Shown here piece after piece: positions 31,616 through 61,866 of a stretch of DNA of 64,000 nt. Below the pieces are notes generated by a model. It was not told where the DNA came from, ran no database searches, and saw only the letters and a list, made by a program, of their open reading frames with translations. Location of the stretch: assembly GCA_025526935.1 (NCBI GenBank), contig JAHLKD010000137.1, positions 30,646 to 94,645 on the forward strand, given 5' to 3'. Source of the DNA: Cladochytrium replicatum (Eukaryota > Chytridiomycota > Chytridiomycetes > Cladochytriales > Cladochytriaceae). The position numbers and the translations under genes were made by a program. Every line of letters begins with the position of its first letter. Within the stretch, counting starts at the first letter, position 1.

Positions 31616-33117
31616 TCCTTCTGGCGGTCAGATACTGGTGGAGAACATGTTAAAAACTAGCATATCAGAGATTCATGGAGCTACAGCATTTTGAAGCTTT
31701 CAGGTTTGATCCATCAGGTCTCGCTGGACCACGGCAAGCGCCTATCAAAACCATCGCCTACGCATTACGAATAGATTCGTGTATTGCTCGCTCGGTTTTG
31801 TTGGCTGCCTGCAGAGTTATGGTGACATGTCCGTATGCATGTATCATGAACCTTTTTTCCATTGTCTCTTGAGATGCTTCATTGCCTGTAGATGCATCGT
31901 GCGCAACGCAGATACATGAAGTTTGCTGGACTTTTCTGGGCTTGGAGAATGGGGATGCTTCATGTTAAGAGTTCCCACCCATTTGTGCATGTGGCGCAGC
32001 ACGTGACACGCTTGTCTGCACATTGACATCAAACATCTTTCTGGACACAGCATACCATGAAGGGTTTCGATTTATTACAGACCCAAAATACGTCAACAGC
32101 TTTCAAAGAAACCACTTGCGCCAGTTGACTCTGATTTTATGTGTTGTATCCCCCTATCCTAGCTGGTGTTGCTTGTGCACAAGCTTCTACTCTTTTATCT
32201 GTGGATTTTGTAATGGAGGATCCCTGATTTTTGCATTCATCAGCTTGCACTTTCAGTTCCTTGACACATACCATTAGAACGTTGCTAGTTAGTCTCGTTT
32301 ACCATTTCTGCACCTGCATTGTTGTTTAGCTTTGCATCGTCGCTTGCTTGCGATTCCACCACACTGGGATTTTGTATGTTATTATGAGCCCATTGTGGTC
32401 TGTCTACCTTGATCTTTGATCTAGAATGCCCGAAATGGTACGAGCAGAGTGCTATCCCTTTGGTCCTTTCTAAATTTCGAAGTCGGTCATATTGCATTGG
32501 AGTTGCGTAAGTTTAGACACCTTCCTTTCGTTTCTCTAAAACAATCTTTTTATGAGTTGTGTTGGATAAGTAGTGAACTCCACACACATTCCTCCATTTC
32601 TCTATCATATGTTTTCTTTTTGTCTTTTTTGACGAGCGATACACGGTGACCTGGTGTATCGTCTGCGAGGCAGCATCTGGTAAAAACTAGCATATCAGAC
32701 TGTTTGCTAAATGGGTTATCCTTTGGGTTGTCTTTTTTCTCTTTGATCTGAGAGTTTTTTTGTCAATCCCTCTTCGTTCTTCTTTATGGACTTGTATTTC
32801 ATGTATTTATTTCCACGTTTGGCAGGTTCTGTGCGGAGTGATGGTGGCATTTAGTGGGGGAATGTGGTGTGGCTTAGTCCTGTGAGTTGATGTGACCAAT
32901 GTCTTTGACCACAGGTATGCCCACACACGCTGTTCACTTGAATATAGGAGTCGATGTGACCAATGTCTTTGACCACAGCATTCCCTGGTTGCCTGACCAG
33001 CTTGGTGGTGTACAGCCTGCCTGATTATTAGGCATATACACACACCTGGGAGAACAGGTACTGGGCCAAGAGACGGAACCTGGAGCTGTTGTGCTACCTA
33101 AAGTACAGCTAAAACGC
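31616..33117. mobile_element. Degenerate LINE-derived DNA with an 18-bp direct repeat
   Basis: No intact frame. The word AAAAACTAGCATATCAGA occurs at 31652-31669 and 32682-32699, bracketing about 1 kb and possibly marking an insertion. A duplication of about 62 bp carries TGTGACCAATGTCTTTGACC (about 32891 and 32953). The last bases before the hAT element read as LINE sequence that resumes at 38041. Confidence 0.45.
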
Positions 33118-33413
33118 CCTACCGCTAAGGTTCGGCAGGTCCGGGTTTCAGTGGTGACCCGCACCAAACCCTTTGGGTCGGGTCGTGTTTGTCTGGGACC
33201 CACCGGGTCACTGACGGGTACAAAGGGAATACCCGGACCCGAAGTGGTTGAAACCCGTACCTGACCCTGACCCGCCGGGTTTTTGCTGCCCAGGAGAGGA
33301 TTGATTGAATTTTGAGTTAGACCACGGATATTTACATGAACACTTTGTGTCTGTGTGGACAGTGTGTATTTTAGAAACACTATCGTAAAAAGAAACAAAA
33401 CTCCACTGAGCAA

Positions 33414-35096
33414 TCACAAGTTGATAGGTGGAACAGCCCAAATCAGCTTCTGTATCTGGTTCATATCGTCAGAGTCCCATCCACCACTGGTTAAGTCCTT
33501 CGCCAACCCAGTCCTGATGAACCGATCAATGTCGTCATTTGAAAGCATGAAATCCTTGGCTAAACCTGTCTTCCAAGGTTTCCAATCCACCTCAGGGAGC
33601 GTTATGGACGAAAGATGCCCGATGTATGCCGTCCAGAACCTTAGCCACTCAGAAGGATAAGCATCCACTAATGCCCTGAACATGCGATAGATAGTGGCAG
33701 ACGTACTTAGCGAATTATTGTGCCGTATCCAGTTTCCGAGCAAAATGTGCACCCTAAGAAGAGTAAGGCTGCTCCGAGCACTGCTACTTGAAGTTGATAT
33801 TCGGCTTGAGCAGTCGTCTGATTCAACAAATATGGGCCGTAAAAACTCATTTCGGGAGAGGACTTCGTAGTTTACATTGACGTACTTGATTGATGGTGGA
33901 AGAGACGGCAATTTAAGGTCATAAATAACCTCATTGATCTTATGCATCTGGAAGCAGATACCCTGGATGACCTCTTTCACCAAAAGGATAGCCGTACGAC
34001 GGTGCTGCTGCAGGCTAAGCAATGCAAGGGAACTCGTTGGAGAACTGGTTCGATGTACCTTCGGAATTCTACCAATCCCCTTGATAGCCGACGATATGCT
34101 TATTAGGCCGCCTGTTGATGTTGGCGCCGCAGGTGCTGCAGCTTCTGAATGACCAGCCTGTCGTTTCAGAGCAGCAAGCTCTCCCTCCAGGGCGGTCACA
34201 CGTGATTTCCATTGTGAAATCTCCTGGGAAGTTGCCTGCTTCTCCCTTTCCATTGCAGCGGTGATCTCCCTGAATCTTGCTAGCTCTTCGTGCTCGCCGT
34301 GCTGAATCAATGCACCCGCCCTGCCCAATTCATCAATGAGAGCCTTCTCTCGCACTTCTGCTGCAATGCGGGTCCTTCTCTCGTTCATTGCAGTCTCTTC
34401 AAGATCTTTTGTCATGTTCAACAGTCGTTCTGACTGTTTGAGGACCTGTTTTGTCCTTTCACGGTCCTCATCTGCTCGTTTGATGGTCGCTTGGAACTCG
34501 TCAACCTTTGCAGTGACGGGCATTCCTCTGTAAATGCCGTACTTGTGTCCCTGCCGCCTGTAAAAGTCCAGAAATGTTGTTTCCTTCTGAAAGGAAGAGC
34601 TTTTCAAGCACTCCATAAGATAGGCATTTGCTGCTGTTATGAACTCCGTTCGTCCACTGCATTCATCGTGAATTTCGTTCAGGGCTTGACGAACTAGCTT
34701 GCTGTCAGAGTTAAGTCGGTCGATCAACCCTTGAAGAACAAATCTTGGGCCGCATTCATCACGATTTGTTTGACAGTTGCTGATGAAGTCCTCCGAGTCG
34801 TAGCTGTGGCCGCTTGCTTTGAATTTTCGATACCAAAGTTGTATGTCTGAAGCAGGACAGAGTCCGTCGATGAGCAAATAGTCAGCATCCCCTTTAGTAC
34901 CACGTCGGGCCGGTTTCTTTGAAGGAGCTGTCGATTTGACATCTGTCGATTTGACATCAAGGCCAACTTCTGCTTCTTCCACTTCAGAACCCGATGCCAG
35001 AGATGTTTCAGGTGCAGTCACAGGTTCTGCACTTGATTCTCTTTCAGATGATGATCTGGATTGTTTTAACGCTCGCTTCTTTGTAGTTCGAGGCAT
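33414..35096 (-). CDS. hAT-borne 560-residue protein of unknown function (copy 1)
   Basis: An intact frame with a good start context (ACACC before ATG). Residues 1-70 are basic/Ser/acidic with NLS-like words (TTKKRALKQSR, KKPARRG). Residues 70-190 form a globular-looking segment (WYRKFKASGHSYDSEDF, FYRRQGHKYG). Residues about 196-314 are a long coiled coil (ERTKQVLKQSERLLNMTKDL). The C-terminal part has several Trp-rich helices (WLRFWTAYIGHL, VDWKPWKTGLAKDF). I see no BED finger, no DDE triad and no hAT dimerisation signature, so this is not the transposase. It could be an accessory transposition protein, a captured host gene or a gag-like protein. Copy 2 at 39739-41421 differs at six residues. 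Confidence 0.85.
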   Translation of the reverse strand: MPRTTKKRALKQSRSSSERESSAEPVTAPETSLASGSEVEEAEVGLDVKSTDVKSTAPSKKPARRGTKGDADYLLIDGLCPASDIQLWYRKFKASGHSYDSEDFISNCQTNRDECGPRFVLQGLIDRLNSDSKLVRQALNEIHDECSGRTEFITAANAYLMECLKSSSFQKETTFLDFYRRQGHKYGIYRGMPVTAKVDEFQATIKRADEDRERTKQVLKQSERLLNMTKDLEETAMNERRTRIAAEVREKALIDELGRAGALIQHGEHEELARFREITAAMEREKQATSQEISQWKSRVTALEGELAALKRQAGHSEAAAPAAPTSTGGLISISSAIKGIGRIPKVHRTSSPTSSLALLSLQQHRRTAILLVKEVIQGICFQMHKINEVIYDLKLPSLPPSIKYVNVNYEVLSRNEFLRPIFVESDDCSSRISTSSSSARSSLTLLRVHILLGNWIRHNNSLSTSATIYRMFRALVDAYPSEWLRFWTAYIGHLSSITLPEVDWKPWKTGLAKDFMLSNDDIDRFIRTGLAKDLTSGGWDSDDMNQIQKLIWAVPPINL

Positions 35097-35264
35097 GGTG
35101 TTTGTACTGTTTGTCGTGGGAAGATACTGGCCCGGTGTTCTTAGCCGGAATCTTACAGGAATGTATGCTATAATACTTCCCTGACACTATAGTTTTCTAC
35201 CCGATCTGAAAATAATAATAAGCTAGGGAAGAAACTGGCTAGTAACATTGATAGAGAGGATTCT

Positions 35265-35975
35265 GTCCGGGTGGACAGAATCTTATTGCTAGTAAAATTG
35301 ATAGAGAGGTTAGCTGTACTTGATAGAGATCACTGAAGTACCGCCAATGAGTTGAGAAAGTGTCCGGGTGGACAGAATCCTATTGCTAGTAACATTGATA
35401 GAGAGGTTAGTTGTATTGGATAGAGATCACTGAAGTACTGTCAATGAGTTGAGAAAGTGTCCGGGTGGACAGAATCCTATTGCTAGTAACATTGATAGAG
35501 AGGTTAGGTGTATTGGGTAGAGATCACTGAAGTACCGCCGTCAATGAGTTGAGAAAGTGTCCGGGTGGACAGAATCGTATTGCTAGTAGTATTTGTAGAG
35601 AGGTTAGCTATACCTGATAGAGATTACTGAAGTACCGTCAATGAGTTGAGAAAGTGTCTGGGTGGACAGAATCCTATTGCTAGTAACATTGATAGAGAGG
35701 TTAGCTGTACTTGATAGAGATCACTGATCACTGAAGTACCGTCAATGAGTTGAGAAAGTGTCCGGGGGGACAGAATCCTATTCTACCCAGACAGACACAG
35801 TGACACTCAGTCTCCCAGACTTCTGTCCACCCGGACACTTTCTCAACTCATTGACGGTACTTCACTGATACTTCACTGATCTCGATCAAGTACAACCAAC
35901 CTCTCTACAAATACTACTCGCAATAGGATTGTGTCCAGGCGGTCGCTTTCTCAACTCCTGGACGGTACTTCAACA
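35265..35975. repeat. hAT sub-repeats, ~97-bp unit x6 plus inverted remnant
   Basis: The 14-base palindromic word TGTCCGGGTGGACA, or close variants, recurs starting near 35265, 35362, 35459, 35559, 35656 and 35760. Each is followed by GAATCCTATTGCTAGTAAC and ends CAATGAGTTGAGAAAG. An inverted, decayed unit follows from about 35822. The array lies between the 560-codon ORF and the transposase relic. Confidence 0.9.
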
Positions 35976-36003
35976 GATGAACAGTCTAAACAACAATTTA
36001 TAT

Positions 36004-37399
36004 TTAAAAGAGTGGGTTATCATCAGTTGCTTCCAACTCTAATACCACATCAAAATCCTCGCCAAAATTATGCACGTTTACAAAATCCTCACTAACATCA
36101 CTTTTTGAATCTAGGGAATCATTTTTGAATGGTTCTTCAGCACTCAATTGATGCAACCAGTCATGACGGCACATCAATGCATTTATTGGTCTTGGAGCAA
36201 GGCGATAAAATCCTTTGCTGCAAGATTGATAATGTGTGCCATACACCGCATGTGTTGAGTTTCTACAGACCACGCAATATCCCTATCTTCCAAGAGCGTC
36301 TCCAGCTTAGCACTCATGGTAAAGTTGTTTGAACCGTTGTCGGTTGTAATGCACAATAAGCATTCACCCGATAGCATGCCAAATTCATCCAGACACTTGA
36401 CAAGCTGACTAGCCATGGCGACGCCTTCATGCTTTCCAACCATCGGAATCATCTGCAGCAGCAAGTCCTGCGGCTCCCATTCTTTCATGATGAAGTGGGC
36501 AGTAATTCCAAGAAAAGAAATCTGGTTCTTCGATGTCCAACAGTCAGCTGGTATTGATACTTTTGAAGGCGAACCAACAATCAGACCTTTAACGAGCTCC
36601 TTCTGCCTATCGTAAAGATCCATCTCCTTTTGCTTCACTGCTTTTGCCGTCTTTGGTGTATAGTTTGGCTGAAAAGTCTTCAGCATGCTGACAAAGAACT
36701 CGTTCTCCACAACAGTAAAAGCCTGATTGTCTGCAGCAATCCAGTCCAAAATCGACCGCCACGCTACGTCTGGATTGAACACAAAGTTTTGCTCCTTCTC
36801 CTGCAAGCCGAAATTCAATGTCTGTTGTCCCTTGGGGACGATTCCAACAGTCCAAGCGACCTGGCAATACTTCCATGGTGGTTTTTCAGATGCCGGAGGA
36901 AGTTTTTTGTTGATCCCGTCTTATCGACCTTCTGGCTCCACTTGCATTTCGCAACCAAACATGTTCTCAGACCATTATCAACCTTATAGTTATCCTTCGC
37001 TATGCTGCCTCGACTACCTCTACAGTCCGACATGCTATCAACATCTGCGTCTGATGAAAGCATTGATGGTTGAACTGATCCAGCAGCAGGCTCCTGTCGC
37101 ACTGAAGAGTCAGCAAAACTAACGTCGGCAGGAAGCTCTGGTGCATGCTGAGAAGCCAGGCCCAACTCGCTGGAGTCATTGGAAGAAGATGTGGAGCTCG
37201 GCTCTCGAGCGCTGTTGTTGCCACCGTGTCCTGATACACGTCTGCGTTTGTCCTGCATGATGTTCCCCTCGCTGGACGCCTCTGAAATTTGGGGGGCTGG
37301 CAGACTTCGCTTCCGTGTGTCAAGCGGATGACTGTCCACCAGTCTTTGGCTTGCGTCGGACGCTGCCTTACGCTTTGGTTTAACAAAGGCGGCGTCCAT
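36004..37399 (-). pseudogene. hAT transposase relic with BED zinc finger
   Basis: The first part (36815-37399) carries a BED-type finger: CLVAKCKW followed by FLRHLKNHH, giving the C-x4-C / H-x4-H pattern. The frame must then shift near 36835 to continue into the RNase-H-like core, where KGQQTLNFGLQ is in register. The core (36183-36818) has the family words PADCWTSKNQISFLGITAHF, TTDNGSNN and HMRCMAHIINLAAKDF, which carry the first catalytic Asp regions. After a stop at 36183 another frame adds an acidic tail to 36004. The helical insertion and C-terminal hATC dimerisation domain are missing, so this copy cannot be autonomous. Confidence 0.8.
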
Positions 37400-37437
37400 T
37401 TTTGCTGTGGTGTGGCTGGAACGTTACCGATTCTAAG

Positions 37438-37835
37438 TGTCCAGGTGCACAGAAAGCACAGCTCTCGAGGTCTGTCGTGGTAGAAATTGTTTGTTACAGA
37501 ACTTCCGTTGTGACTTCTTGGAAAGTGTCCAGGTGGACAGAATCGTATTGCTAGTAACATTGATAGAGGTTAGTTGTACTGGGTAGAGATAACTGAAGTA
37601 CGTCAATGAGTTGAGAAAGTGTCCAGGTGGACAGAATCCTATTGCTAGTAACATTGATAGAGAGGTTAGTTGTATTGGGTAGAGATAACTGAAGTACGTC
37701 AATGAGTTGAGAAAGTGTCCGGGTGGACAGAAAATACATGCCTCGATGTCTGTTGTGATGCAAAATTGTTTGATACATACAAAACTTATATTGCGTCTTC
37801 TTGGAAAGTGTCCGCGTGGACAGAAAGAACAATAG
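37438..37835. repeat. hAT sub-repeats on the other side of the transposase
   Basis: The same GTGTCC-AGGTGGACAG unit as at 35265-35975, in the same orientation, recurs near 37438, 37527, 37621, 37717 and 37810. The spacers are identical in type (TTGCTAGTAACATTGATAGA). The transposase relic is thus bracketed by arrays of one motif. Confidence 0.88.
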
Positions 37836-38040
37836 CTTCGTTTTAGCTTCTCTATCACATCGGGTTTTACTCGGGTCTGACTTTTGACCCGAGGAGGGTT
37901 TTCCTACTGGACCCGATACCCGACCCGGACCCGACCCGAAAATTTTCCATGAAAACCCGGCACTCGGGTCGGGTACATTTGGTCAATGGACCCGGACCCG
38001 ACCCGAAAGACCCTAAAACCCGCCGATCCTTACCTACCGC

Positions 38041-39154: not shown

Positions 39155-39495
39155 TCAAGGGTTTTGTGAAATATCAGCAATTTGGTTCTCAGTATCAATA
39201 TCTCTGAGTTCCTGCTGCTTCTGCTCAATTTGAAGATTCACAAACTTTTCTCGAACATCCATGTGTTTAGTTCTGTGATCATTAAGCAGGTCATTGGCAA
39301 TAGACTGCGTAGAGGTATTATCTTGCCAGAGGATCATGGGCTTACTTTTGGATGAAATACCAATGGTTGCCATGAGGTTTTTCATCCACTTCATCTCAGG
39401 TGATAATTCATTCAATGCATATAACTCTGCTTCAGTGGAAGAGCAAGTTATAACCTGTTGCTTTGTAGACTGCCAGCAAACAGCTGCATTGGCGA
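39155..39495 (-). pseudogene. Copia-B RNase H, 3' portion
   Basis: Reads MNELSPEMKWMKNLMATIG, LWQDNTSTQSIAND and HMDVREKFVNLQIEQKQ, the C-terminal RNase H of Ty1/Copia elements. Its upstream half (SRTGYVVMFAN) lies beyond the hAT insertion at 41717, so the insertion broke the frame. The extreme C-terminus is degenerate. Confidence 0.8.
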
Positions 39496-41708
39496 TAAGG
39501 ATCGGCGGGTTTTAGGGTCTTTCGGGTCGGGTCCGGGTCCATTGACTAAATGTACCCGACCCGAGTGCCGGGTTTCCTCTCTATCAATGTTACTAGCCAG
39601 TTTCTTCCCTAGCTTATTATTATTTTCAGATCGGGTAGAAAACTATAGTGTCAGGGAAGTATTATAGCATACATTCCTGTAAGATTCCGGCTAAGAACAC
39701 CGGGCCAGTATCTTCCCACGACAAACAGTACAAACACCATGCCTCGAACTACAAAGAAGCGAGCGTTAAAACAATCCAGATCATCATCTGAAAGAGAATC
39801 AAGTGCAGAACCTGTGACTGCACCTGAAACATCTCTGGCATCGGGTTCTGAAGTGGAAGAAGCAGAAGTTGGCCTTGATGTCAAATCGACAGATGTCAAA
39901 TCGACAGCTCCTTCAAAGAAACCGGCCCGACGTGGTACTAAAGGGGATGCTGACTATTTGCTCATCGACGGACTCTGTCCTGCTTCAGACATACAACTTT
40001 GGTATCGAAAATTCAAAGCAAGCGGCCACAGCTACGACTCGGAGGACTTCATCAGCAACTGTCAAACAAATCGTGATGAATGCGGCCCAAGATTTGTTCT
40101 TCAAGGGTTGATCGACCGACTTAACTCTGACAGCAAGCTAGTTCGTCAAGCCCTGAACGAAATTCACGATGAATGCAGTGGACGAACGGAGTTCATAACA
40201 GCAGCAAATGCCTATCGTATGGAGTGCTTGAAAAGCTCTTCCTTTCAGAAGGAAACAACATTTCTGGACTTTTACAGGCGGCAGGGACACAAGTACGGCA
40301 TTTACAGAGGAATGCCCGTCACTGCAAAGGTTGACGAGTTCCAAGCGACCATCAAACGAGCAGATGAGGACCGTGAAAGGACAAAACAGGTCCTCAAACA
40401 GTCAGAACGACTGTTGAACATGACAAAAGATCTTGAAGAGACTGCAATGAACGAGAGAAGGACCTGCATTGCAGCAGAAGTGCGAGAGAAGGCTCTCATT
40501 GATGAATTGGGCAGGGCGGGTGCATTGATTCAGCACGGCGAGCACGAAGAGCTAGCAAGATTCAGGGAGATCACCGCTGCAATGGAAAGGGAGAAGCAGG
40601 CAACTTCCCAGGAGATTTCACAATGGAAATCACGTGTGACCGCCCTGGAGGGAGAGCTTGCTGCTCTGAAACGACAGGCTGGTCATTCAGAAGCTGCAGC
40701 ACCTGCGGCGCCAACATCAACAGGCGGCCTAATAAGCATATCGTCGGCTATCAAGGGGATTGGTAGAATTCCGAAGGTACATCGAACCAGTTCTCCAACA
40801 AGTTCCCTTGCATTGCTTAGCCTGCAGCAGCATCGTCGTACGGCTATCCTTTTGGTGAAAGAGGTCATCCAGGGTATCTGCTTCCAGATGCATAAGATCA
40901 ATGAGGTTATTTATGACCTTAAATTGCCGTCTCTTCGACCATCAATCAAGTACGTCAATGTAAACTACGAAGTCCTCTCCCGAAATGACTTTTTACGGCC
41001 CATATTTGTTGAATCAGACGACTGCTCAAGCCGAATATCAACTTCAAGTAGCAGTTCTCGGAGCAGCCTTACTCTTCTTAGGGTGCACATTTTGCTCGGA
41101 AACTGGATACGGCACAATAATTCGCTAAGTACGTCTGCCACTATCTATCGCATGTTCAGGGCATTAGTGGATGCATATCCTTCTGAGTGGCTAAGGTTCT
41201 GGACGGCATACATCGGGCATCTTTCGTCCATAACGCTCCCTGAGGTGGATTGGAAACCTTGGAAGACAGGTTTAGCCAAGGATTTCATGCTTTCAAATGA
41301 CGACATTGATCGGTTCATCAGGACTGGGTTGGCGAAGGACGTAACCAGTGGTGGATGGGACTCTGACGATATGAACCAGATACAGAAGCTGATTTGGGCT
41401 GTTCCACCTATCAACTTGTGATTGCTCAGTGGAGTTTGTTTCTTTTTACGATAGTGTTTCTAAAATACACACTGTCCACACAGACACAAAGTGTTCATGT
41501 AAATATCCGTGGTCTAACTCAAAATTCAATCAATCCTCTCCTGGGCAGCAAAAACCCGGCGGGTCAGGGTCAGGTACGGGTTTCAACCACTTCGGGTCCA
41601 GGTATTCCCTTTGTACCCGTCAGTGACCCGGTGGGTCCCAGACAAACACGACCCGACCCAAAGGGTTTGGTGCGGGTCACCACTGAAACCCGGACCCGCC
41701 GAACCTTA
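39496..41708 (+). mobile_element. hAT internal-deletion copy, 2.2 kb, ORF only
   Basis: Termini TAAGGATCGGC (39496) and CCGAACCTTA (41708) match the 4.9-kb copy. Flanking 8-bp duplications ATTGGCGA (39488-39495 and 41709-41716) are exact. After 80 bp of the transposase-side end, sequence jumps to the segment just outside the sub-repeat array (CCTCTCTATCAATGTTACTA), so about 2.7 kb with the transposase and all sub-repeats is gone. Orientation is opposite to copy 1. It sits in the RNase H of Copia-B. Confidence 0.93.
39739..41421 (+). CDS. hAT-borne 560-residue protein of unknown function (copy 2)
   Basis: Same length and layout as the protein at 33414-35096: NLS-like N-terminus, segment 70-190, coiled coil about 196-314, Trp-rich C-terminus. 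Six differences were counted by eye: L160R, R243C, and four changes in the C-terminal half (P to R, E to D, A to S, L to V). No stop or frameshift has entered although the element has no transposase. The 240 bp upstream, including the 5' flank to the ATG, matches copy 1, so a promoter may travel with it. Confidence 0.85.
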   Translation: MPRTTKKRALKQSRSSSERESSAEPVTAPETSLASGSEVEEAEVGLDVKSTDVKSTAPSKKPARRGTKGDADYLLIDGLCPASDIQLWYRKFKASGHSYDSEDFISNCQTNRDECGPRFVLQGLIDRLNSDSKLVRQALNEIHDECSGRTEFITAANAYRMECLKSSSFQKETTFLDFYRRQGHKYGIYRGMPVTAKVDEFQATIKRADEDRERTKQVLKQSERLLNMTKDLEETAMNERRTCIAAEVREKALIDELGRAGALIQHGEHEELARFREITAAMEREKQATSQEISQWKSRVTALEGELAALKRQAGHSEAAAPAAPTSTGGLISISSAIKGIGRIPKVHRTSSPTSSLALLSLQQHRRTAILLVKEVIQGICFQMHKINEVIYDLKLPSLRPSIKYVNVNYEVLSRNDFLRPIFVESDDCSSRISTSSSSSRSSLTLLRVHILLGNWIRHNNSLSTSATIYRMFRALVDAYPSEWLRFWTAYIGHLSSITLPEVDWKPWKTGLAKDFMLSNDDIDRFIRTGLAKDVTSGGWDSDDMNQIQKLIWAVPPINL

Positions 41709-41716
41709 ATTGGCGA

Positions 41717-42959
41717 ACATTACAACATATCCTGTCCTGGAATAGTGAGCAGGATCATTTGCCCGGTCTGCATCAGCATATCCCATAGGGATGTGTTCAT
41801 TTGATGCAAACTCATATACACCATCAGAGCGTACGTTGGGAGTGCGTATGTTGTTGCGTGTGTAATGCAAACCATAGTCCCATGTTCCCAATAAGTAACG
41901 ATGCAGGCGAGCTAGTGCCTTTTGTTCGCAAACTCGTGGTTCAACCTGATGCTGTGCCAAGACATTGACAGCATAAGATAAATCAGGTCTGGTCTTTGTA
42001 GCTAGGTACGAGATTTTCATGAGTTCCGAGCGAAAAATAGTTGCATCATTTTTGGATAAAATAGGCAAGCTTGTTTCATGTTTGTAGTGAGAAGAAATAG
42101 GTGTTTTGGCTGGTCTTAAATTGGATTCCCATAATTTCAATCTCTGCAATATTTCCTTTGCATATTGAGCATTGGTTATGAAATAACCGTGAGTAGTTTT
42201 GATCAATTGCATTTTCAGAATCCATTTGGCTGTAGAGTGACTTCCAACCTTGAATGAGGAATTCAAGCCATCCATGAAGTCTTGGTAGCCATTTGGGTCT
42301 GGAGAGAAATGAAGAATATCATCTACATGAACAGTAGTGTGTTCACGTATTTTCACAGTGGAACTGTGAGTAGATGATTTCATTTGCCAGAAATGACAAG
42401 CATCTGAAAGATCACGGATGTATCCCATGTCTTCATATTTTGCCCAGAGGCATTTGTACCATTCTCTAGCAGCTTGATGTAAACCATATAAGCTTTTGAC
42501 AAGATTACAAACTAATGGATTGCCAGATTCGTCAGTCTCTGTAAATCCATGGGGCATTTCAACATAAACATCTTCCTCAAGTGATGCATTGAGATATGCT
42601 CCTGTAATGTCAAATTGATAAATGCGTAATTTGACAATTGCAGCAAGAGCAACTAGTAATCAAATTGTAGTGGTTTTTGCCACAGGAGAATAGGTTTTGT
42701 CGAAATCCATTCCCTGTATCTGGGAGAACCCTCTAACTACCCATCGTGCCTTGAATCGGATGATGTTGCCATCTTCATCAAGTTTGTATGAATATACCCA
42801 TTTACCAGTGAGAAGGTTGTTCCCATTTGGCAAGATGCGTTTGTTCCATGTTCCCAAATTGATAAGTTGTTGATTTTCTTCACATATGGCTGCAAGCCAG
42901 TATGGCCATTCATCAGGTCGCGACATAGCTTCCTGGACTGTTTTGGGAATACTTCTCAA
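41717..42959 (-). pseudogene. Copia-B reverse transcriptase, one nonsense codon
   Basis: N-terminal RT words EAMSRPDEWPYWLAA, GKWVYSYKLDEDGN and ARWVVRGFSQIQGMDF precede a TGA near 42660. In the sister fragment at 62466-63286 that codon is CGA (Arg), so one C-to-T change inactivated the frame. Downstream come LVKSLYGLHQAAREW, TTVHVDDILHFS (catalytic pair DD), and SRTGYVVMFAN where the hAT element enters. The usual Tyr before V-D-D is His. Confidence 0.82.
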
Positions 42960-43009: not shown

Positions 43010-43448
43010 TGTAGAATTTCGTCGTAGGCAGGTAAGATCAGATAAGAGGTACTTGTTCAATGTATTGGAAGCTTAAGACTCACACCTTTTATAGGTTCTC
43101 CCATTCCCAACAAAGCCTCCCTTAATTTGTCCTTGCCACGTCAGCAGCGGCGCTCTCCTTCCTCCTTTGGTAAGTCCCCTTCAAGTTTGCTGGTGATCCG
43201 GAATTTTCTGGAACGCTGGCTTTTGAAGTTTTCGTCGAAGAACATGAAGCCGAAATAGAAACAGGAATGAAAATTTTGGATAACAACAAAGCTAGTGTCG
43301 TGGGTTAAATGACAAGCCATTCAACATCATGTCGCAAGTTCGATTCTGAGGATCAACAATAATCCTGTTGTTATCCTCAGCCGAACTTTTTCTTTTTGAA
43401 AGTAAAAACAAAGAAGGAAAACTTTTATGAACGAAACAACACTCAACA
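43010..43448 (-). repeat. Copia-1 3' LTR
   Basis: 439 bp with TG...CA ends on the minus strand (TGTTGAGTGTTG ... TTCTACA). It is preceded on that strand by the polypurine tract AAACGGGGGAG. No difference from the 5' LTR at 47831-48269 was seen by eye. Confidence 0.92.
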
Positions 43449-43569
43449 CTCCCCCGTTTCTGAACAAAAGTTCTTCCTTTGAAAGTTGAAAAGAAATAAC
43501 AATTGAAAAACAAACATAGAAGCCAGAAGGAATGCAAACATAATTGGTGTGTCCTTCAAGAAACAAAAC

Positions 43570-44136
43570 CTAATTTTCTCTCATCTCTTTCATTGCATCT
43601 ACCATCCCAAGTAGACCCATCAGTTTCTCATGTCGACGTCGTGCGAGACCCTTGGTGAAGATGTCTGCCACCTGATCCTCTGTGGGGATATACTGCAGGT
43701 CAATGTCCCCAGATTGAATGCGGCCACGCACAATGTGATATCGCAAAGCGATATGCCGGGACTTGAATCCGGGATTGCGGGCACCAGCAATTGCAGCGGT
43801 ATTGTCGCAGTGGACTACAGGCGGAGCAGCAAAGGAATATCCAAGTTCTTCAAGCATGTGCTTTACCCAAACGAGTTCGTCGCTAGCTGTGGATAGTGCA
43901 ACGTACTCCGCTTCTGCTGTCGAACTCGCCGCTGATGTTTGAAGCTTGCTCCCCCAGGCAACAGCTCCCCCATTGATCAAGATAGCATATCCCGTAGTCG
44001 ACTTTTTGTTGTCAGGATCTCCGGCGTGATCCGCGTCCGCATAGCATACAATCTCAAGGCGATCTCGTCGTCCATAGCGGATTCCATTTGAGGGAGTGTG
44101 CAGCAGGTAGGCGACACCCGTTCCGCCGCGCACCAA
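43570..44136 (-). CDS. Copia-1 RNase H and C-terminus (shifted frame)
   Basis: Carries the Copia RNase H with CYADADHAGD (catalytic Asp), STAEAEYVALS (catalytic Glu), VHCDNTAAI, then HIALRYHIVR and IPTEDQVADIFTKGLA, the usual end of a Copia pol. It is in a different frame from the main ORF. A missing base in the stretch about 44125-44140 (before AYLLHTPSNG) separates them; restoring the frame would fuse the two. Confidence 0.85.
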   Translation of the reverse strand: MVRGGTGVAYLLHTPSNGIRYGRRDRLEIVCYADADHAGDPDNKKSTTGYAILINGGAVAWGSKLQTSAASSTAEAEYVALSTASDELVWVKHMLEELGYSFAAPPVVHCDNTAAIAGARNPGFKSRHIALRYHIVRGRIQSGDIDLQYIPTEDQVADIFTKGLARRRHEKLMGLLGMVDAMKEMREN

Positions 44137-47100
44137 TGAGTGTACTGAGGTGCGTTTTGATAACGCGCAACGGTGCCAGTGGCAAACGAGATATCGGGTC
44201 GTGTGCTCGTCGCGGCGTATAGGAGCTGACCGACGATTGTGCGATAGCTAATCTCATTTCGCTCGACCTCGATCTCCTCTCCCATATCCTTGAAGATTGT
44301 AAAGCCAGCTTCAACTGGTGTTTTCCGCTCGAATCTGATCTTACATTTCTTCGCCGACATTCTGATGTACTGCGCTTGAGAGATGGTGAGCTTGCCGCCG
44401 TCCTTATCGTAGTCAATTTCCCAGCCGAGATAATACTTCGGGGATCCTGCCTCGCTGACCTCAAATCGTCGCTTCATCAACTCCTCGATTCGATTCACCT
44501 CGTCCTCATCGGTCGACGCCACCAGAATATCGTCCACGTAGATGACGACAAGCGTGAGCGACGATCCCTCTCGACGGTAGTAGAGGCAGACATCGCTATC
44601 GGAACGTTTCAGCTTGATGACGGTCACTAGGAAATCGTCGAAGAGACTATTCCACTCGCAAGGCGGCTGCTTGAGGCCATAAAGCGCACGAATAGCTAAG
44701 CAGACCCAATCTTCCTTGCCCGGTTCAATGAATCCCTCTGGCTGCTCGTAGTAGAGTTCGCGGTCGATGATGCGCGCATTCAGGAACGCTGTTTTGATGT
44801 CGTACTGGCGCATCACCATCCGTTCCTGCACCACGAGCGCCAACACAACTCGAACAGTTTGTTTTCGAGCCACCGGAGAAAACGTCTCATCAAAGTCCTC
44901 TCCCTCGCGTTGCGAATATCCTTTCGCAATGAACCGCGCCTTGTGCCGAACCATCTTCCCCTCGGCGTTCGTCTTGTAGCGATATACCCAGCCTGACTTG
45001 ATGATGTTTCGCCCTGCAGGCCTCGGTACAAGTCGCCACGTTGAGTTCTCGCGATGCGCAAGGATCTCCTCTTGCATGGCAGCTGTCCAGTCGTCCTTCT
45101 CCAGGCTCGCCATGGCTTCCTCATACGTCCTTGGTTCCGTGTGCAAGATCACCTTCCTTTTCGAGGCTACTCGTGCCGATCCGACTTGTTTCACCTTCTC
45201 AAAGCCATACCGTTCGACTGACCTTTTCTCTCGGCTTCCTCGGCGCACAGGAATCTTACTAGTGCTGGGTTTCCGCTTCAATAGCCCAGGATCTTGCACC
45301 TCTACTTCATCGTCCTCCGATTCCGTGTCCTTGTCCCTTGAATTGGTCTCGACCTCCCCCTCACTGTCGTCGCTGTCGCTATCTCTATAGCTGCTGTCAT
45401 CGCTGTCGCTGTTGTTGCTGGCCAAGTCGGTGTGTTTGAGCGGTTTTGCCGAGTCTCTGTGTTGGGGGAGGTTTTTGAAAGAGACCAGTTCAAGGGCATC
45501 AGTAAGGGCTCGCTCATTCCAGGTATGCTTCTCATCAAACACCACCGACTTGCTTTTCATCATTACTTTCCTTTTCGGGTCCCAGACACGAAATCCGAAT
45601 GCTTCGTATCCAACAAAGATTCCTGGGATCGCTCGATCCGCTAGCTTGCCCGATGGGAGGGGATCGTGCACGTATGCCACGCATCCCCAGGTCCGCAGTT
45701 TGCTGACGTTTGGTTTTCTGCCTGTCGCGGCCTCCAATGGCGTAATACTTGTCTTCCCGATCTTGCGCGGGAGCCGGTTGTTTAGGTAACATGCTGTTAC
45801 CATCGCCTCGCCCCATAGCTTGCTGTTTGCCCCTGCCTCATTTAACATAGCTCGTGTAAGATTTTGGAGGGTCCGATTTGCTCGCTCAACAGGTCCATTC
45901 TGCATCGGGGTGTACGGCATGGTAGTGTGATGTTGAATGCCGCGCTTCCGTGCCCATGCCTCGTACTTTTGTGAAATCAACTCTTTTGCGTTGTCGGTGA
46001 CAACTACTTGGACCTCCTTGCCAGTAAGGAGTCCTATCTCTCGCACGGCATCTTGACTGAACTCGAATGCCAGATCCTTGGTTTTCAGGGGGCGTACAAC
46101 CAGGACTCCAGAGTTCCTGTGTGCTGCGACCGCGGCATAGATTGCACCTCCGTAGGTGGGCGGCTTTATTGGTCCTTGGAGATCGATGTAGAGGGTGCTA
46201 TGGGAATTAACGTCAATGTCCTTGATCCGTGGAAAGCTAGTTCTGGTCAACTTAGCTTTCACACAGGTCGGACAAGGGTCCAACCTCTCAGTTCCATCGA
46301 TCTCCATTCCTTCAACTAGCTTCTGGGCCTCCTCGATCCGATTGAATCCAGCGTGTCCGAACCTTCTATGCCAAGTGATGAGATCCGCTGTTGCGTCGTT
46401 ACGTCGTGCCACCCTGGCGATCGATCGGGACAGATCAAGTGCAAACAAGTTGCAAGTCTTATCTTGTGTGAACTCCATGACTATCTCATTGTTGCGACCG
46501 ATCTGGATCTTCTTGCCAGCACCGTAGAGCTTGAGACGGTGTTCTATGAGTCGATTCCATGATACCAAGTTGTCAGACAGGTTCGGAGCAAAGTACACTT
46601 CACTAAGGATCACCTCCCTCTCCCGCCCTCCAACTGATACCAGCAATCGAACTCTTCCGATCCCGACAACCTTGAGTCCTGATCCAGCATTTGCGGTGTC
46701 GATCTCAATCGGAGTAATCTTCCGCAACTCGATGAACGCCCTTTGATCGTTGCACAGGTGGTGCGAAGCCCCAGTGTCGAAGAACCACTTAGAAGATCGA
46801 TCAGAGAATCTCTCCGAAGCCATGAACGCAATCGCAGGTAGCGTTACTTCGTTTGCGTGCCCACCGCTTCTTCCGCCACCGCGGTTGGATCCTCCATTTC
46901 CTCGACCGCGTCCTCTACCGCCGCTCCCTCGACCTCGACCGCCTCTTCCAGTACCTCGTCCGCCACCTCGACCTCCTCGACCTCCGCTACCACCTCGTCC
47001 GTTTCCAGAGCCTTGATTTGAACCACCCAAACTCGAGGTCTGGTTAGGACAGTTGGCAGCGAAGTGGCCTGGCTGGCTACAGTTCCAGCAAAGTCGTTGG

Positions 47101-47831
47101 TTGCCGCCGGAGGTCTGATAAGCTTGATCTCGACTGTTACCTTCCTCGTTTTCGCGACTTCGTCGTTTGCTTTCGTCGTCGAGAAGTCGGCCGACAACAT
47201 ATTGGTAGTCCTTTCGGCGGGTGTCATCCTCAACGTCAATTGTGGCAATCACAGTATCGAATTCCGGAGGGAGGGAGCTGAGCAGGTAGATGATGTGCTG
47301 GTCTGGGGAAATGGAATCACCAATAGCAGTCAGTCTCTGGACAATCATGGCAAGTTCCGAGATGTGGGTCTTAAGATCAGACCCGGTACTCATCTTTTTC
47401 CCCATTAGCTCGCGTCGGAGTGTGATCCTGTTGACGTTGGCCTGGCGCTGGTACATCTGATCGAGGGCTACGAGCATCGCCTTTGCGGTGTTCGCGCTGG
47501 TGACAAGCGAAAGTACGACGTTGCTGAGCTTCCCGATGATCTTGGATCGGGCCTTGCGATCATCCAGAACACTTTCTTCATGGGCGGCGATTTCGGCCTT
47601 GCCAGCATTGCTAGTCTCGTCAAAACCAGTTCGCAGTCGTGGGTCAGGATTTGGTCCCCTGTCGACAACTGTCCAGAGCTCCTTGCCCTCGAGATAGGCC
47701 ACCATGCAGAGTCGCCAGGTATGATAATTCTCTCCATCAAAGACAAAGAGATTGTCATCCTGAGCTTTGCGGGTCATGAGCGCCGTTGGTTTCGGCTGTT
47801 GTTGGGAAGAGCGAGAATCCACTGCTACCAT
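43977..47831 (-). CDS. Copia-1 Gag-protease-integrase-RT polyprotein
   Basis: 1284 codons. Order: Gag (FDGENYHTWRLCMVAYL), zinc knuckle CWNCSQPGHFAANC, an Arg/Gly-rich run of about 60 residues, protease FFDTGASHH, pre-integrase region with HRRFGHAGF and CPTC (zinc-binding), integrase YIDLQGP / VTDNAKE / NGPVERANR (D-D-E), and an acidic Ser/Asp linker. RT follows with FDIKTAFLNA and VIYVDDILVAS. The last residues after THWCAAER are out of register owing to a frameshift. The ATG overlaps the final A of the 5' LTR, so the primer-binding site TGGTAGCAGTGG is also codons 1-5. Confidence 0.92.
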   Translation of the reverse strand: MVAVDSRSSQQQPKPTALMTRKAQDDNLFVFDGENYHTWRLCMVAYLEGKELWTVVDRGPNPDPRLRTGFDETSNAGKAEIAAHEESVLDDRKARSKIIGKLSNVVLSLVTSANTAKAMLVALDQMYQRQANVNRITLRRELMGKKMSTGSDLKTHISELAMIVQRLTAIGDSISPDQHIIYLLSSLPPEFDTVIATIDVEDDTRRKDYQYVVGRLLDDESKRRSRENEEGNSRDQAYQTSGGNQRLCWNCSQPGHFAANCPNQTSSLGGSNQGSGNGRGGSGGRGGRGGGRGTGRGGRGRGSGGRGRGRGNGGSNRGGGRSGGHANEVTLPAIAFMASERFSDRSSKWFFDTGASHHLCNDQRAFIELRKITPIEIDTANAGSGLKVVGIGRVRLLVSVGGREREVILSEVYFAPNLSDNLVSWNRLIEHRLKLYGAGKKIQIGRNNEIVMEFTQDKTCNLFALDLSRSIARVARRNDATADLITWHRRFGHAGFNRIEEAQKLVEGMEIDGTERLDPCPTCVKAKLTRTSFPRIKDIDVNSHSTLYIDLQGPIKPPTYGGAIYAAVAAHRNSGVLVVRPLKTKDLAFEFSQDAVREIGLLTGKEVQVVVTDNAKELISQKYEAWARKRGIQHHTTMPYTPMQNGPVERANRTLQNLTRAMLNEAGANSKLWGEAMVTACYLNNRLPRKIGKTSITPLEAATGRKPNVSKLRTWGCVAYVHDPLPSGKLADRAIPGIFVGYEAFGFRVWDPKRKVMMKSKSVVFDEKHTWNERALTDALELVSFKNLPQHRDSAKPLKHTDLASNNSDSDDSSYRDSDSDDSEGEVETNSRDKDTESEDDEVEVQDPGLLKRKPSTSKIPVRRGSREKRSVERYGFEKVKQVGSARVASKRKVILHTEPRTYEEAMASLEKDDWTAAMQEEILAHRENSTWRLVPRPAGRNIIKSGWVYRYKTNAEGKMVRHKARFIAKGYSQREGEDFDETFSPVARKQTVRVVLALVVQERMVMRQYDIKTAFLNARIIDRELYYEQPEGFIEPGKEDWVCLAIRALYGLKQPPCEWNSLFDDFLVTVIKLKRSDSDVCLYYRREGSSLTLVVIYVDDILVASTDEDEVNRIEELMKRRFEVSEAGSPKYYLGWEIDYDKDGGKLTISQAQYIRMSAKKCKIRFERKTPVEAGFTIFKDMGEEIEVERNEISYRTIVGQLLYAATSTRPDISFATGTVARYQNAPQYTHWCAAERVSPTCCTLPQMESAMDDEIALRLYAMRTRITPEILTTKSRLRDMLS

Positions 47832-48269
47832 GTAGAATTTCGTCGTAGGCAGGTAAGATCAGATAAGAGGTACTTGTTCAATGTATTGGAAGCTTAAGAC
47901 TCACACCTTTTATAGGTTCTCCCATTCCCAACAAAGCCTCCCTTAATTTGTCCTTGCCACGTCAGCAGCGGCGCTCTCCTTCCTCCTTTGGTAAGTCCCC
48001 TTCAAGTTTGCTGGTGATCCGGAATTTTCTGGAACGCTGGCTTTTGAAGTTTTCGTCGAAGAACATGAAGCCGAAATAGAAACAGGAATGAAAATTTTGG
48101 ATAACAACAAAGCTAGTGTCGTGGGTTAAATGACAAGCCATTCAACATCATGTCGCAAGTTCGATTCTGAGGATCAACAATAATCCTGTTGTTATCCTCA
48201 GCCGAACTTTTTCTTTTTGAAAGTAAAAACAAAGAAGGAAAACTTTTATGAACGAAACAACACTCAACA
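47831..48269 (-). repeat. Copia-1 5' LTR
   Basis: 439 bp, same boundaries as the 3' LTR. It is followed on the minus strand by TGGTAGCAGTGG, a likely initiator-Met-tRNA-type primer-binding site starting at the LTR edge. Confidence 0.92.
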
Positions 48270-48611: not shown

Positions 48612-49210
48612 TGTTAAGTATTTCGATTGATGGACTTGGCCAATCCTGTCATTGATAGTACAAAAACACAAATGCCCAATATAAAGATATGTCACTCTTC
48701 CCCGAGCAACATTTCTAACTATTGAACTAAAGCATATAGATGATGATCTATTACGAGTTTGGATACCTCCGGTTATTTCTTCATGGGTTATATTTATTGC
48801 GGCCATAGGTATAGTAAACTGTCATTACTTTTCTATCATCCACTTGTAGAAGTGAAGCCCGGATCAGATCACAGCAAAGGTTTACATATGATTAACGCGT
48901 TCGTGGGAATCATGTGTGAGAACAATCCTGTTGAGGAGAGCTAGATCTCACGCACAGCTTAGCATGATTATGCTTCGCTACGCCTGTGAGAAGAAGAGTC
49001 AAACCTTATCGCTTCGATCCAGATCTTCCGGAAGGAAAAGCCAAAACGACAGTACACTTATTTAAGGAGCCTGTGGCGATACACACAAGGAGCATTCTCT
49101 TGCGCTAGTACTTGTGACTCGCAATCTTCTTTATTCATCTCTTAGAAACATTAACCCGTGAATTAGCAACACACACAACCTGAGGATCCAGACCACAGCT
49201 TTGTTCAACA
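48612..49210 (+). repeat. Copia-C 5' LTR
   Basis: 599 bp from TGTTAAGTATTTCG to TTTGTTCAACA (TG...CA). Near-identical LTRs lie at 54578-55177, 61867-62465 (minus) and in part at 56037-56515 (minus) and 63287-63880 (minus). Confidence 0.88.
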
Positions 49211-49261
49211 CAATAGTTACGAATCGTTGCTTAACACATTTCTTTGGACAACAACGACAAG

Positions 49262-52200
49262 ATGGGTTCAGGATCGAATGACACCACATCTTCGCGGCCG
49301 AAGCCATTCACCGGTAAAACGCTGCAGGATTTCGATCTGTACATGGAACAAGTGCAGACTTACGCAAACTTACGTGGCGGCGCTGGCACTATGCTTCTCC
49401 AAGAACCAATGGCTCTTCCTGATAATCCGAATTACGAGGCGGAAGGAAATCGCCCACAGCGTCCGATAGTCATCGCCGGAGCTGCTGGCGGAGCTGCTAA
49501 CGAAGCACGAGCACAATGGGAAGCAGAACTACGTGAACATTTGGCGATCGTCACACACAACAGTCACTTACGTACGCAATATCGTGCTGAGATGCAAGAT
49601 TACCGTGCACAACAAGCGGACAATAACGTCGCAGTTGGAATTCTATGCGAATGTTTCCCAAAACGCGACATGAATCGAGTCAGAGCTTATGCGTCAGCAA
49701 AAGGCAAAGTCGATGGACTTTGCCGAATTTTCAGTGCTGGCGGACAAGCTCCGATCAAATCGTCTATGTGGGAGCAACGGCTGGTAGATCTGAAATGTAC
49801 GAACGGTCAGTCGGCAGAAAGCGTTCAGCAGTTTGTGACCGACCTCACTGAGTTATTCGAACTCAAACTGAACTCTTTACCGGACGAACTCGTAATCAAG
49901 GATCTACTAAACCGGTTAGTCGCAAAAATCACGATGCAGACAATTGAACTACGGACCCTCGTACCTTTTCTCGGAAAAATGATCACTTCTGCGTATGCCG
50001 AATGGGAACCGGCGTTAATACAAGATCCAATTGATGCTGCAAATCCGAATGCTCCGCGACCATTCCACCAAAAGCCAACGCATTACTTCGAAACAGTGTC
50101 AAATATCTTGACCGACCTCAACCAATTGGTCCAACTCAACGTCACCATGGATGCCGGTGGGCCGAATGGGACAAAGAAGGCCATGAAGGCAAAGGCGAAG
50201 AAAGCGAAGGCGAAAGCGAAAGCCAAGGTTGCGAAGTCGGAGGATATTTGTACCTTGCATCCGAACTCATCTCACACCAATGCTCAATGCCGTAAGCAGG
50301 GTGCCTCGAGTGGCTCAGGCAGTAGCGGTGGGAGTAGCAGTTCCACTCGGACCAGGCAGTCGCAGGACTCCAGGTCGTCCACATCTTCTTCTGCAAAGAA
50401 GACAGATCTCACATGCAATTTCTGTGGCAAACGAGGACACAAGCAGTCGGCGTGTAAACGCTATCTCACTGCAAAGAGTCTTTGTTTAGACACGGATTTT
50501 CGTGCATTCATTGCCAGCCGTGGCGATGCAGGTGATGATTCGTCGGAGGACGAATCTACCGCCAAACCGGTGTTGACCAAGAAGGTAATCTTTGACCTTA
50601 CCCAACCTACTTCTGTTGATAAAGATGCTGACACATACATCGGAAATATGTTTTCGATAGTGAACGCACACTCGGCACAGAAGGTTGTCCGTGTACATGT
50701 TCAAGCAAAGGATCGTGTGGGTTTGCTTGATACAGGCGCAACTGTTTGGATGACACCTAATCGTCATGCCTTTAGTTCGCTGACGTATACGAATGACGAG
50801 GACGTGGTGGAACTAGCGGATAGTCATACAATTCCAGTTTGTGGTTTTGGAGATGTATCTGTAGTTTTACCCAATGGGCGAATTAAGATAATACACAACG
50901 CACTTTATGTTCCTGATCTCGAAGACACACTTGCATCAGTGTGTAGTATCATTGGAGACTCCGGAGACATTGTGAGTTTCACCAAAGACAAGGCTATCCT
51001 CACGCATGGTGATACGGATGAACACGTTATTATTGGGCGACGGGAAAGAGATTTGTACTATCTCTATGCTGATGTTAGTACCGTCGGAACTCACCAACCG
51101 CGGCATGTGATTGCTCAACGAGCTAAAGCAGTAGCGGTATCCGCAGAAGGTCTCGATCAGTCGATGGACTTTACGTCCGGTGTACGATCTTCTCACGCGA
51201 TGGGTCTCGATGTAATGTCAGACAACAACATTCGTCAAACGAACGATGATGAATGTCAACGAGCATCTCAAGATACAGTTGGAGTGAGCACCAACTTATC
51301 GCCAGTGACAGTACGCGAACTTGCAAAGTTACACCAGCAGTTTGGTCACATCCACTTACGGACAATCTTTCGAACGGCAGAGAAGCTCAACATCAAAATG
51401 CCCAAGGTTGAACCGGATGCATTCAATCTTGTCAACAAATCAATTATGCAGAATTGTTTGGTCTGTAGTCGCACGAAGCTGAAGCAGAAGCCGATTTATT
51501 CTACAATAAGTCGAGCTCCGAGGAAACTTTTCCGTCTGTTTTCCGATGTCGTACGTTTAATCTACGACGGACAGAAGAAGAGATATTGGCAGATCATTGT
51601 CGACGAACAACCTCGTTTCATCACAATCTACTTCCTGAATCGAAAGAGTGATGCGGTGGATAGTATGATTCGACATATCGCTGATGTGGAAAATCGCAAT
51701 CACCCATTACACGTTGCTGAACTACGTTCCGATTCAGGAGAATTGATTACCAAACGGTTGATCCAATGGTGCAATACCAAGATTCCTCGCATCCGCGTCC
51801 ACCCAGCTCCTCCGTCAGTAAAGGAACTCGATGGTCTATCAGAGCGGAATATACAATCGATCAAGTATATGTCGGACGCGATGCTGCTACAAGCTGGACT
51901 ACCACGAACACTTCAATTCGTGCAACTCTCCATCCTATACGCTGCGGTCGTCAAGAACGCTACTTTCCATTCAGCTGTGAATGCGATTCCGTACTGTGCT
52001 TACCTTGACAAGCGGATAGATTTGGCAACTATCCACGCCTTTGGAACACTCGTTAGTTTGTGGATCTCACACGAACAAAGGTTGGCGCGCAGAATCCGAG
52101 ACAAGTCTGAACTAGGTCTGTTTCTCGGATACAAGGGTGAAGACCTGAAGATCGTCATAGCACTCAATTTTCGGACAAACACAATAGGCGAATACTTCCA

Positions 52201-52747: not shown

Positions 52748-54008
52748 TATCGATTGGACCCTGAAGGCCGATTCCTCATATCCAACACAACCAATTGCGA
52801 ATGGAAATATACGGACTGCACCAAAGACTCTTCGTGAGGCTTTATCACGATCCGATGAGGCTCCATTCTGGTTAGCGGCGATGAAGGAGGAAGTTACACA
52901 ACTAGTCGGCAACAATACTTGGGCCGAAACGTTTTTACCTGATGGACGGAATTTATTATCGGGCAAATGGGTTTTCACATATAAGCTTGACGAACATGGC
53001 AATATTACTCGATTCAAAGCACGTTGGGTCGTACGAGGATTTTCACAGATTGAAGGATTGGATTTCGATGAAACCTATTCTCCAGTTACGAAAACGTCCA
53101 CGATCCGTTTTCTGATTGCATTAGCAGCATTAGTCGGCATGATCATATTCCAGTTTGATATCAAGGGTGCATATCTCAATGCGATACTGGAAGAAGAGAA
53201 CTACGTCGAACTCCCTCATGGTTTCGGACGAGTAGATTTCCAGAATCGACCCATCGTCTGCAGACTTATCAAAAGTCTGTACGGTCTACACCAGGCAGCT
53301 CGAGAATGGTACAAAACTCTTTGGAAACAATATCTCAGTGTTGGTTTCGTGCGGAATATTGCAGACATCTGTCATTTCTGGCGATACAATCCAACAAATA
53401 ATACCCGCGAACACACTACCGTTCATGTCGATGATATACTACATTTTTCCACAGATCCAAACGCATATCATCGGTTTCAGACCGATTTGGAAACTTCGTT
53501 CACAGTAGGCAGTACTTCGAAGGCGAAATGGATTCTGAAAATGGAGTTATTGCAGACAACGGAAGGATATTTCCTTAGCAATGCATTGTACGTAAAGAAG
53601 ATTCTCGAAGAAGCGAATTTATGGGGTACCAACATCAAACCGACCAAAACACCGATGTCAAAATCATATATCTTTGATGAGACCACACCAACACTGTCCG
53701 ATGCCGAGGCAACACAATTTCGATCAATGTTAATGAAGATATCGTACGTGGCGACTAAGACACGACCGGATATTTCATACGCAGTCAATATTTTGGCACA
53801 ACATCAGATTGATCCTCGACAGTCAGAATCAAAGGCTCTCTATCGATTACAACGATATTTACTCGGTACTTGGGATTACGGTTTACACTATACACGGACT
53901 GGTATCACGTCTCCGATGCTAAGACCCGACGGTCTCTACATGTTTGATTCGGCTAACAACCCACAAGGTTATGCCGATGCAGACTGGGCGGGCGATGCAG
54001 ATAGATAG
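52736..54008 (+). pseudogene. Copia-C reverse transcriptase, frame-shifted from gag-int
   Basis: Open from about 52736 although its first ATG is at 52881. RT words: GKWVFTYKLDEHGN, ARWVVRGFSQIEGLDF, FDIKGAYLNA, LIKSLYGLHQAAREW, TTVHVDDILHFS (His in place of the usual Tyr of YVDD), then GYADADWAGDADR. It is cut at 54008 by a GATA duplication (GATAGATAGATA at about 54000). Confidence 0.82.
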
Positions 54009-54450: not shown

Positions 54451-54577
54451 ACGACCGGCTGGCGATGTCCATACAACTCACCTTTATTTCAATAGAATAT
54501 CAACTTCAGCATTTACAGAAAGTTATGATCGGTTGAGTGATACTCTCGGTTGTACCTATCTAATGACTGAGGGGGTG

Positions 54578-61815: not shown

Positions 61816-61866
61816 CTTGTCGTTGTTGTCCAAAGAAATGTGTTAAGCAACGATTCGTAACTATTG

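What the first reader, a model, noticed from the sequence alone, without database searches (positions are those of the whole stretch)
33126..38032. hAT transposon carrying a second, intact 560-codon gene of unknown function
Seen directly: short terminal repeats (TAAGGWTCGGC), an exact 8-bp target duplication, a BED/RNase-H-like transposase relic, and a separate 560-codon frame with an NLS-like start, a ~120-residue coiled coil and a Trp-rich C-terminus. Known: most hAT elements encode only a transposase. Inference: this is a two-gene hAT lineage whose second protein may assist transposition (DNA binding or bridging, nuclear import) or be a captured host gene. I recognise no family.
Basis: partly seen in the sequence, partly recalled or inferred. 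Interest (0 to 1): 0.8.

Follow-up and report, generated by a model that had tools for sequence, protein, structure and literature searches.

The report
Fungal hAT-like transposon with second gene
A jumping DNA element of the hAT type, probably in a fungus, carries next to its broken cut-and-paste enzyme a second, intact gene of unknown family, and a shortened copy of the element nearby has kept only that second gene.

Summary
A 4907-bp hAT-like element (33126-38032) has 11-bp ends, an exact 8-bp target duplication, a damaged transposase and an intact 560-codon gene. (1) A second, inverted copy at 39496-41708: 2213 bp, its own 8-bp duplication, 99.4% identical over 2135 aligned columns, no transposase, 560-codon frame open, inserted in a copia-type retrotransposon frame that is restored when it is taken out. 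(2) Arrays of a palindrome, TGTCC-N4-GGACA, spaced 88-104 bp, one upstream of each gene; all 14 matches in 64 kb (at most one mismatch) lie inside the two copies. The transposase is truncated as well as frame-broken. The 560-aa protein matched only coiled coils in the libraries searched; no eukaryotic genome collection could be searched. Whether it is a second element gene or a captured host gene is unsettled; I lean to the first. Fungal hATs with extra genes are in print (PMC3538342: transposase, an ORF of unknown function and a histone H3-like gene). New variant of a known kind; moderate interest.

The parts
33126..38032 (-). copy 1: hAT-like element, 4907 bp, both genes read on the minus strand
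   Evidence: 11-bp ends with 1 mismatch, 8-bp duplication
33118..33125 (.). target duplication CCTACCGC, left
38033..38040 (.). target duplication CCTACCGC, right
33414..35096 (-). gene 2, 560 codons, intact, unknown family, coiled coil about residues 195-313
33348..33361 (.). single palindrome-like site (1 mismatch), 222 bp from the end; could be chance
35264..35782 (.). array A: 5.2 units of about 97 bp, six palindromes, upstream of gene 2
35821..35972 (.). inverted array units with one palindrome, next to the cut transposase end
36007..36282 (-). third open stretch of the broken transposase, acidic; the reading stops at 36004-36006
36186..36920 (-). second open stretch, with DCWTS, TTDNGSNN and CMAHIINL motifs
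36818..37423 (-). first open stretch, with start codon at 37399 and a BED-like C2H2 finger
37438..37822 (.). array B: five palindromes, two spacer types, upstream of the transposase
39496..41708 (+). copy 2: internal-deletion form, 2213 bp, inverted relative to copy 1, no transposase
39739..41421 (+). gene 2 in copy 2, 560 codons, 6 nonsynonymous and 3 synonymous differences
39488..39495 (.). target duplication ATTGGCGA, left of copy 2
41709..41716 (.). target duplication ATTGGCGA, right of copy 2

Best explanation
A hAT-like element family with two genes behind alike control regions, seen here as two non-autonomous copies. Shown: copy 1 has hAT-like ends, a truncated transposase and intact gene 2; copy 2 has the same ends and gene 2 alone; a palindrome array in the same orientation lies upstream of each gene in copy 1. 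Inferred: the 560-aa product is a coiled-coil, probably nuclear protein that works with the transposase; most likely it binds or bridges element DNA (the palindromes or the CGGGT-rich end regions) and so helps to bring the ends together or regulates both promoters, as second proteins of En/Spm, MuDR or Harbinger elements are held to do (recalled, no call). The copies in this window would move only with transposase supplied from elsewhere.
For: Second copy with its own target duplication keeps the intact frame while the transposase is gone. Palindrome arrays upstream of both genes, 14 of 14 window matches inside the elements, 2.0 expected, 0 of 100 shuffles reach 14. The palindrome and its 88-104-bp spacing are kept between two unrelated spacer types. 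Codon use of gene 2 is nearer to the transposase pieces (r 0.42) than to EF3 (0.08) or three copia ORFs (0.13-0.32). No introns break the frame in either copy.
Against: Both copies are one recent lineage, so they show no long association. dN/dS between them 0.60, p 0.44: no selection signal. The codon correlations are weak; the two transposase pieces agree with each other at only 0.16, and only one host gene was compared. Array A may be filler from faulty gap repair, not a designed promoter. Copy 2 has lost both arrays and keeps one weak site. No DNA-binding fold was recognised and the model was poor.
Confidence: 0.48

Rival explanations
1. Gene 2 is a captured host gene (transduplication): an intronless copy taken up by a hAT element and multiplied as a passenger with no role in transposition.
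For: Fungal hATs have done this with histone H3: P. tritici-repentis (PMC3538342) and P. fijiensis, there an intronless copy (PMC6710886). Gene 2 is intact while the transposase is broken.
Against: It lies behind an element-specific array, its codon use is unlike the one host gene compared, and no host-like copy lies elsewhere in the window (tblastn with both copies masked, no hit at E 10). The host genome could not be searched.
Confidence: 0.33
2. Gene 2 belongs to another mobile element that inserted into the hAT, or was joined to it by rearrangement.
For: The middle of copy 1 is rearranged: inverted array units meet the cut transposase.
Against: No second set of ends was noticed around gene 2 in the repeat search (20 of 31 direct and 25 of 64 inverted pairs shown), and the protein resembles no known transposon protein in Pfam.
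Confidence: 0.1
3. On the palindromes only: they are binding sites of the transposase's own BED finger (self-control), and gene 2 does not bind them.
For: The BED finger of ZBED1, which also has a C-terminal hAT-type (ATC) domain, binds TGTCG(C/T)GA(C/T)A (PMC8775481 passage; PMC6179265 passages); its arms resemble TGTCC/GGACA.
Against: The ZBED1 site has no 4-bp spacer; the BED match here is below cut-off; no binding tested. It can be true together with the best explanation.
Confidence: 0.4

Closest known systems
hAT element of Pyrenophora tritici-repentis with H3L (PMC3538342; section 20 part 1 and passages read)
   Different: There the short form fuses parts of two ORFs and keeps the hAT dimerisation domain; here the short form loses the transposase whole and keeps gene 2. 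No histone here.
hAT element of Pseudocercospora fijiensis with captured histone H3 (PMC6710886; abstract, sections 6 and 7 read)
   Same: Fungal hAT, 8-bp duplications, extra coding sequence without introns.
   Different: The captured gene is a known host gene and the copies are broken by RIP; here the gene is of unknown origin and intact.
ToxhAT (PMC9594970; passages read)
   Same: Fungal hAT-type transposon carrying a non-transposase gene.
   Different: 14 kb, with a known cargo gene; no relation of the proteins was tested.
Kolobok lineages with accessory proteins (PMC9587614; passages read)
   Same: DNA transposons that encode a second protein next to the transposase.
   Different: Another superfamily, TTAA duplications; their accessory proteins (KolX, nucleases, helicase) were not compared with gene 2.

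Membership tests
hAT superfamily | 8-bp target site duplication | tested here: met
   CCTACCGC for copy 1, ATTGGCGA for copy 2, both exact
hAT superfamily | short terminal inverted repeats | tested here: met
   11 bp with one mismatch in both copies
hAT superfamily | transposase with BED finger and RNase-H-like core | tested here: inconclusive
   zf-BED below cut-off; no profile match for the core; three recalled hAT motifs in order in one frame
hAT superfamily | C-terminal hATC dimerisation domain | tested here: inconclusive
   Absent from copy 1: coding stops near 36007. The two stricter motif patterns had no hit in the window; the loosest had one, inside the EF3 gene at 7095. Truncation, not family, may explain it
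two-gene DNA transposon (transposase plus helper) | second gene inside the same ends, present in more than one copy | tested here: met
   2 of 2 copies in the window; one lineage only
two-gene DNA transposon (transposase plus helper) | second gene kept across diverged families | not testable with these tools
   no eukaryotic genome collection; own genome not held
two-gene DNA transposon (transposase plus helper) | second gene maintained by selection | tested here: inconclusive
   6 nonsynonymous, 3 synonymous, ratio 0.60, p 0.44; frame open in both copies
transduplicated host gene | a host donor gene exists | not testable with these tools
   none in the window; rest of the genome not held

The most novel reading that the evidence does not exclude
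A hAT lineage in which transposition needs a second, element-encoded coiled-coil protein of a new family that binds phased palindrome arrays in front of both genes, and in which short elements spread carrying only this second gene, so that enzyme and helper are split between different copies.
Probability: 0.2. Interest if true: 0.75.

Novelty: new variant of a known kind. Interest (0 to 1): 0.47.

Why it matters
A hAT with a dedicated second protein and phased palindromes before both genes would add hAT to the DNA-transposon superfamilies with a helper protein and would give a defined binding site to test it on. A short copy that keeps only the second gene is a natural test of whether that gene is helper, regulator or passenger.

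Tried and rejected
Family searches of the 560-aa protein (Pfam, NCBIfam, PHROGs; three fragments in Pfam) gave only similarity at about residues 188-328 (best PHROG: head scaffolding, E 3.4e-5; best NCBIfam: HlyD, E 1.4e-4, 21 bits against a cut-off of 208.65; best Pfam E 0.08). I treat this as coiled-coil composition, not homology. PDB sequences: best E 0.23. Close relatives of the 560-aa protein in viral contigs, bacterial and archaeal genomes, plasmids and phages, of a transposase piece in viral contigs and of the array core in viral contigs: none, as expected of collections without eukaryotic genomes. PADLOC was not searched. AlphaFold models were poor (560 aa: mean pLDDT 39.8, 73 residues at 70-90; transposase piece 37.5), so I ran no fold search.

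Introns as the cause of the two frame changes in the transposase: many GT-AG pairs of fitting length exist, so introns cannot be excluded for either change; they do not explain the missing C-terminal part. Gene 2 as the displaced C-terminal half of the transposase: rejected, it holds no match to the hATC patterns. Copy 2 as an assembly duplicate: rejected, since the copies differ by 13 changes, have different duplications, and copy 2 interrupts a copia frame.

Ten paper searches: nine on hAT elements or accessory genes (two searches found none) and one on ZBED1. Long results were seen in part (15 of 65, 20 of 32). Among what I saw, no paper describes a coiled-coil second protein in hAT; the library holds open-licence papers only.

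Full report
What was claimed and what is there. The element at 33126-38032 is real. It begins TAAGGTTCGGC, ends GCCGATCCTTA, and is flanked by CCTACCGC on both sides. The end sequence with at most one mismatch occurs at four places in the 64-kb window, the four ends of two copies. CGGGT/ACCCG pentamers crowd the end 250 bp of copy 1 (10 and 15, against 11 in the 4407 bp between).

A second copy. BLAST of the element against the window shows a second, inverted copy at 39496-41708, flanked by ATTGGCGA on both sides. It is 2213 bp: 80 bp match one end of copy 1 with 1 difference, and the rest aligns over 2135 columns with 2123 identities and one gap. The joint corresponds to about 35260 and 37953 of copy 1. 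The transposase and the palindrome arrays are gone; the 560-codon frame is open. Taking out copy 2 and one target duplication restores an uninterrupted copia-type frame across the site; the adjoining ORF matches RVT_2 with E 6.1e-14. So an element with these ends inserted there. Whether the deletion came before or after that insertion cannot be told from one copy.

Gene 2. 560 aa at 33414-35096 (minus) and 39739-41421 (plus). Nine codons differ: 6 change the residue, 3 do not; dN/dS 0.60, p 0.44, so there is no selection signal between the copies. The single indel between the copies lies outside the frame. Single-base shuffles of that stretch gave at most 231 codons (1000 shuffles), so the frame is not chance; that it was kept by selection at some time is inference. 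The protein has a basic start (net +4 in residues 1-69), low-confidence helices at 82-182, long helices at 195-265 and 270-313 (block pLDDT up to 79) and a low-confidence helical C-terminus with 7 of its 9 Trp in the last 105 residues. Nothing but coiled-coil similarity turned up in Pfam, NCBIfam, PHROGs or PDB sequences. Codon use is nearer to the transposase pieces (r 0.42) than to EF3 (0.08) or three copia ORFs (0.13-0.32), but the two transposase pieces agree with each other at only 0.16 and one host gene was compared.

Transposase. Three open stretches in three frames on the minus strand: 36818-37423 (weak zf-BED, below cut-off), 36186-36920 and 36007-36282. Three recalled hAT motifs stand in order in the middle one: DxWTS and TTDNxxN have this one hit each in six frames of the window, CxxHxxNL has one other, isolated hit at 13892. 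Of the hATC patterns the loosest has one hit, inside the EF3 gene; none lies in the element. The reading stops at 36004-36006 and inverted array units reach to 35972. Copy 1 therefore looks non-autonomous. The hAT assignment rests on the 8-bp duplications, the ends and the motifs, not on a profile match.

Palindrome arrays. TGTCC-N4-GGACA with at most one mismatch occurs 14 times in 64 kb, 10 of them exact; 2.0 are expected and 0 of 100 shuffles reach 14. Thirteen are in copy 1 and one in copy 2. Six lie in array A (35264-35782) upstream of gene 2, one in the inverted units (35824) and five in array B (37438-37822) upstream of the transposase start. The other two are one site seen in both copies (33348, 41473), no more than chance would give, although it starts 222 bp from its end as the outermost site of array B ends 210 bp from the other. 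Starts are spaced 88-104 bp within arrays. Of nine spacers, seven are of one type and two of another. Across types the alignment z lies between -1.2 and 2.1; between the two of the second type it is 8.1-9.1, and between different members of the first type 10.9-19.3. Yet both types keep the palindrome and the spacing. This suggests that the palindrome is what matters; but tandem duplication means the sites are not independent, and the shuffle control does not allow for that.

How it probably works. Shown: ends, target duplications, an inserted second copy, intact gene 2, arrays upstream of both genes. Inferred: the arrays are control or assembly sites. The BED finger of the transposase may bind them, since that of ZBED1 binds TGTCG(C/T)GA(C/T)A (a resemblance only). 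The coiled-coil protein may bind or bridge the same DNA as a dimer. I put 0.48 on gene 2 being a working second gene of the element, 0.33 on a captured host gene and 0.10 on a gene from another element.

What is known. [quoted passage not shown]); a hAT of Pseudocercospora fijiensis with captured histone H3 (PMC6710886, abstract and sections 6 and 7); ToxhAT with cargo (PMC9594970, passages). Accessory proteins are described for Kolobok lineages (PMC9587614, passages). PMC6431247 (passages) has no mention of hAT. So the general kind is known; the particular protein, the palindrome arrays and the gene-2-only short form are what would be new, as far as the searches named in Tried and rejected reach.

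Limits.

Noticed in passing
48612-55057 and 56037-62465: Two copia-type elements in inverted orientation, 99.3% identical over 6449 columns; a true inverted pair or an assembly effect.
   Followed up: no
43010-48269: A copia-type retrotransposon with an open 1284-codon gag-pol frame (43977-47831 minus) and flanking 439-bp direct repeats (43010-43448, 47831-48269) 100% identical, so probably inserted very recently.
   Followed up: partly
39210-42557: The copia-type frame into which copy 2 inserted; taking out copy 2 restores it.
   Followed up: yes
5205-8363 (minus): Elongation factor 3-like gene (HEAT_EF3_N E 7.9e-52, two ABC domains, chromodomain), consistent with a fungal host.
   Followed up: partly
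32884-32978: Two 31-bp direct repeats, 97% identical, 64 bp apart, just left of copy 1.
   Followed up: no
53231 and 59443: One further pair of equal 8-mers (AGTAGATT) next to 11-bp inverted ends with one mismatch, inside the copia pair; probably chance.
   Followed up: no
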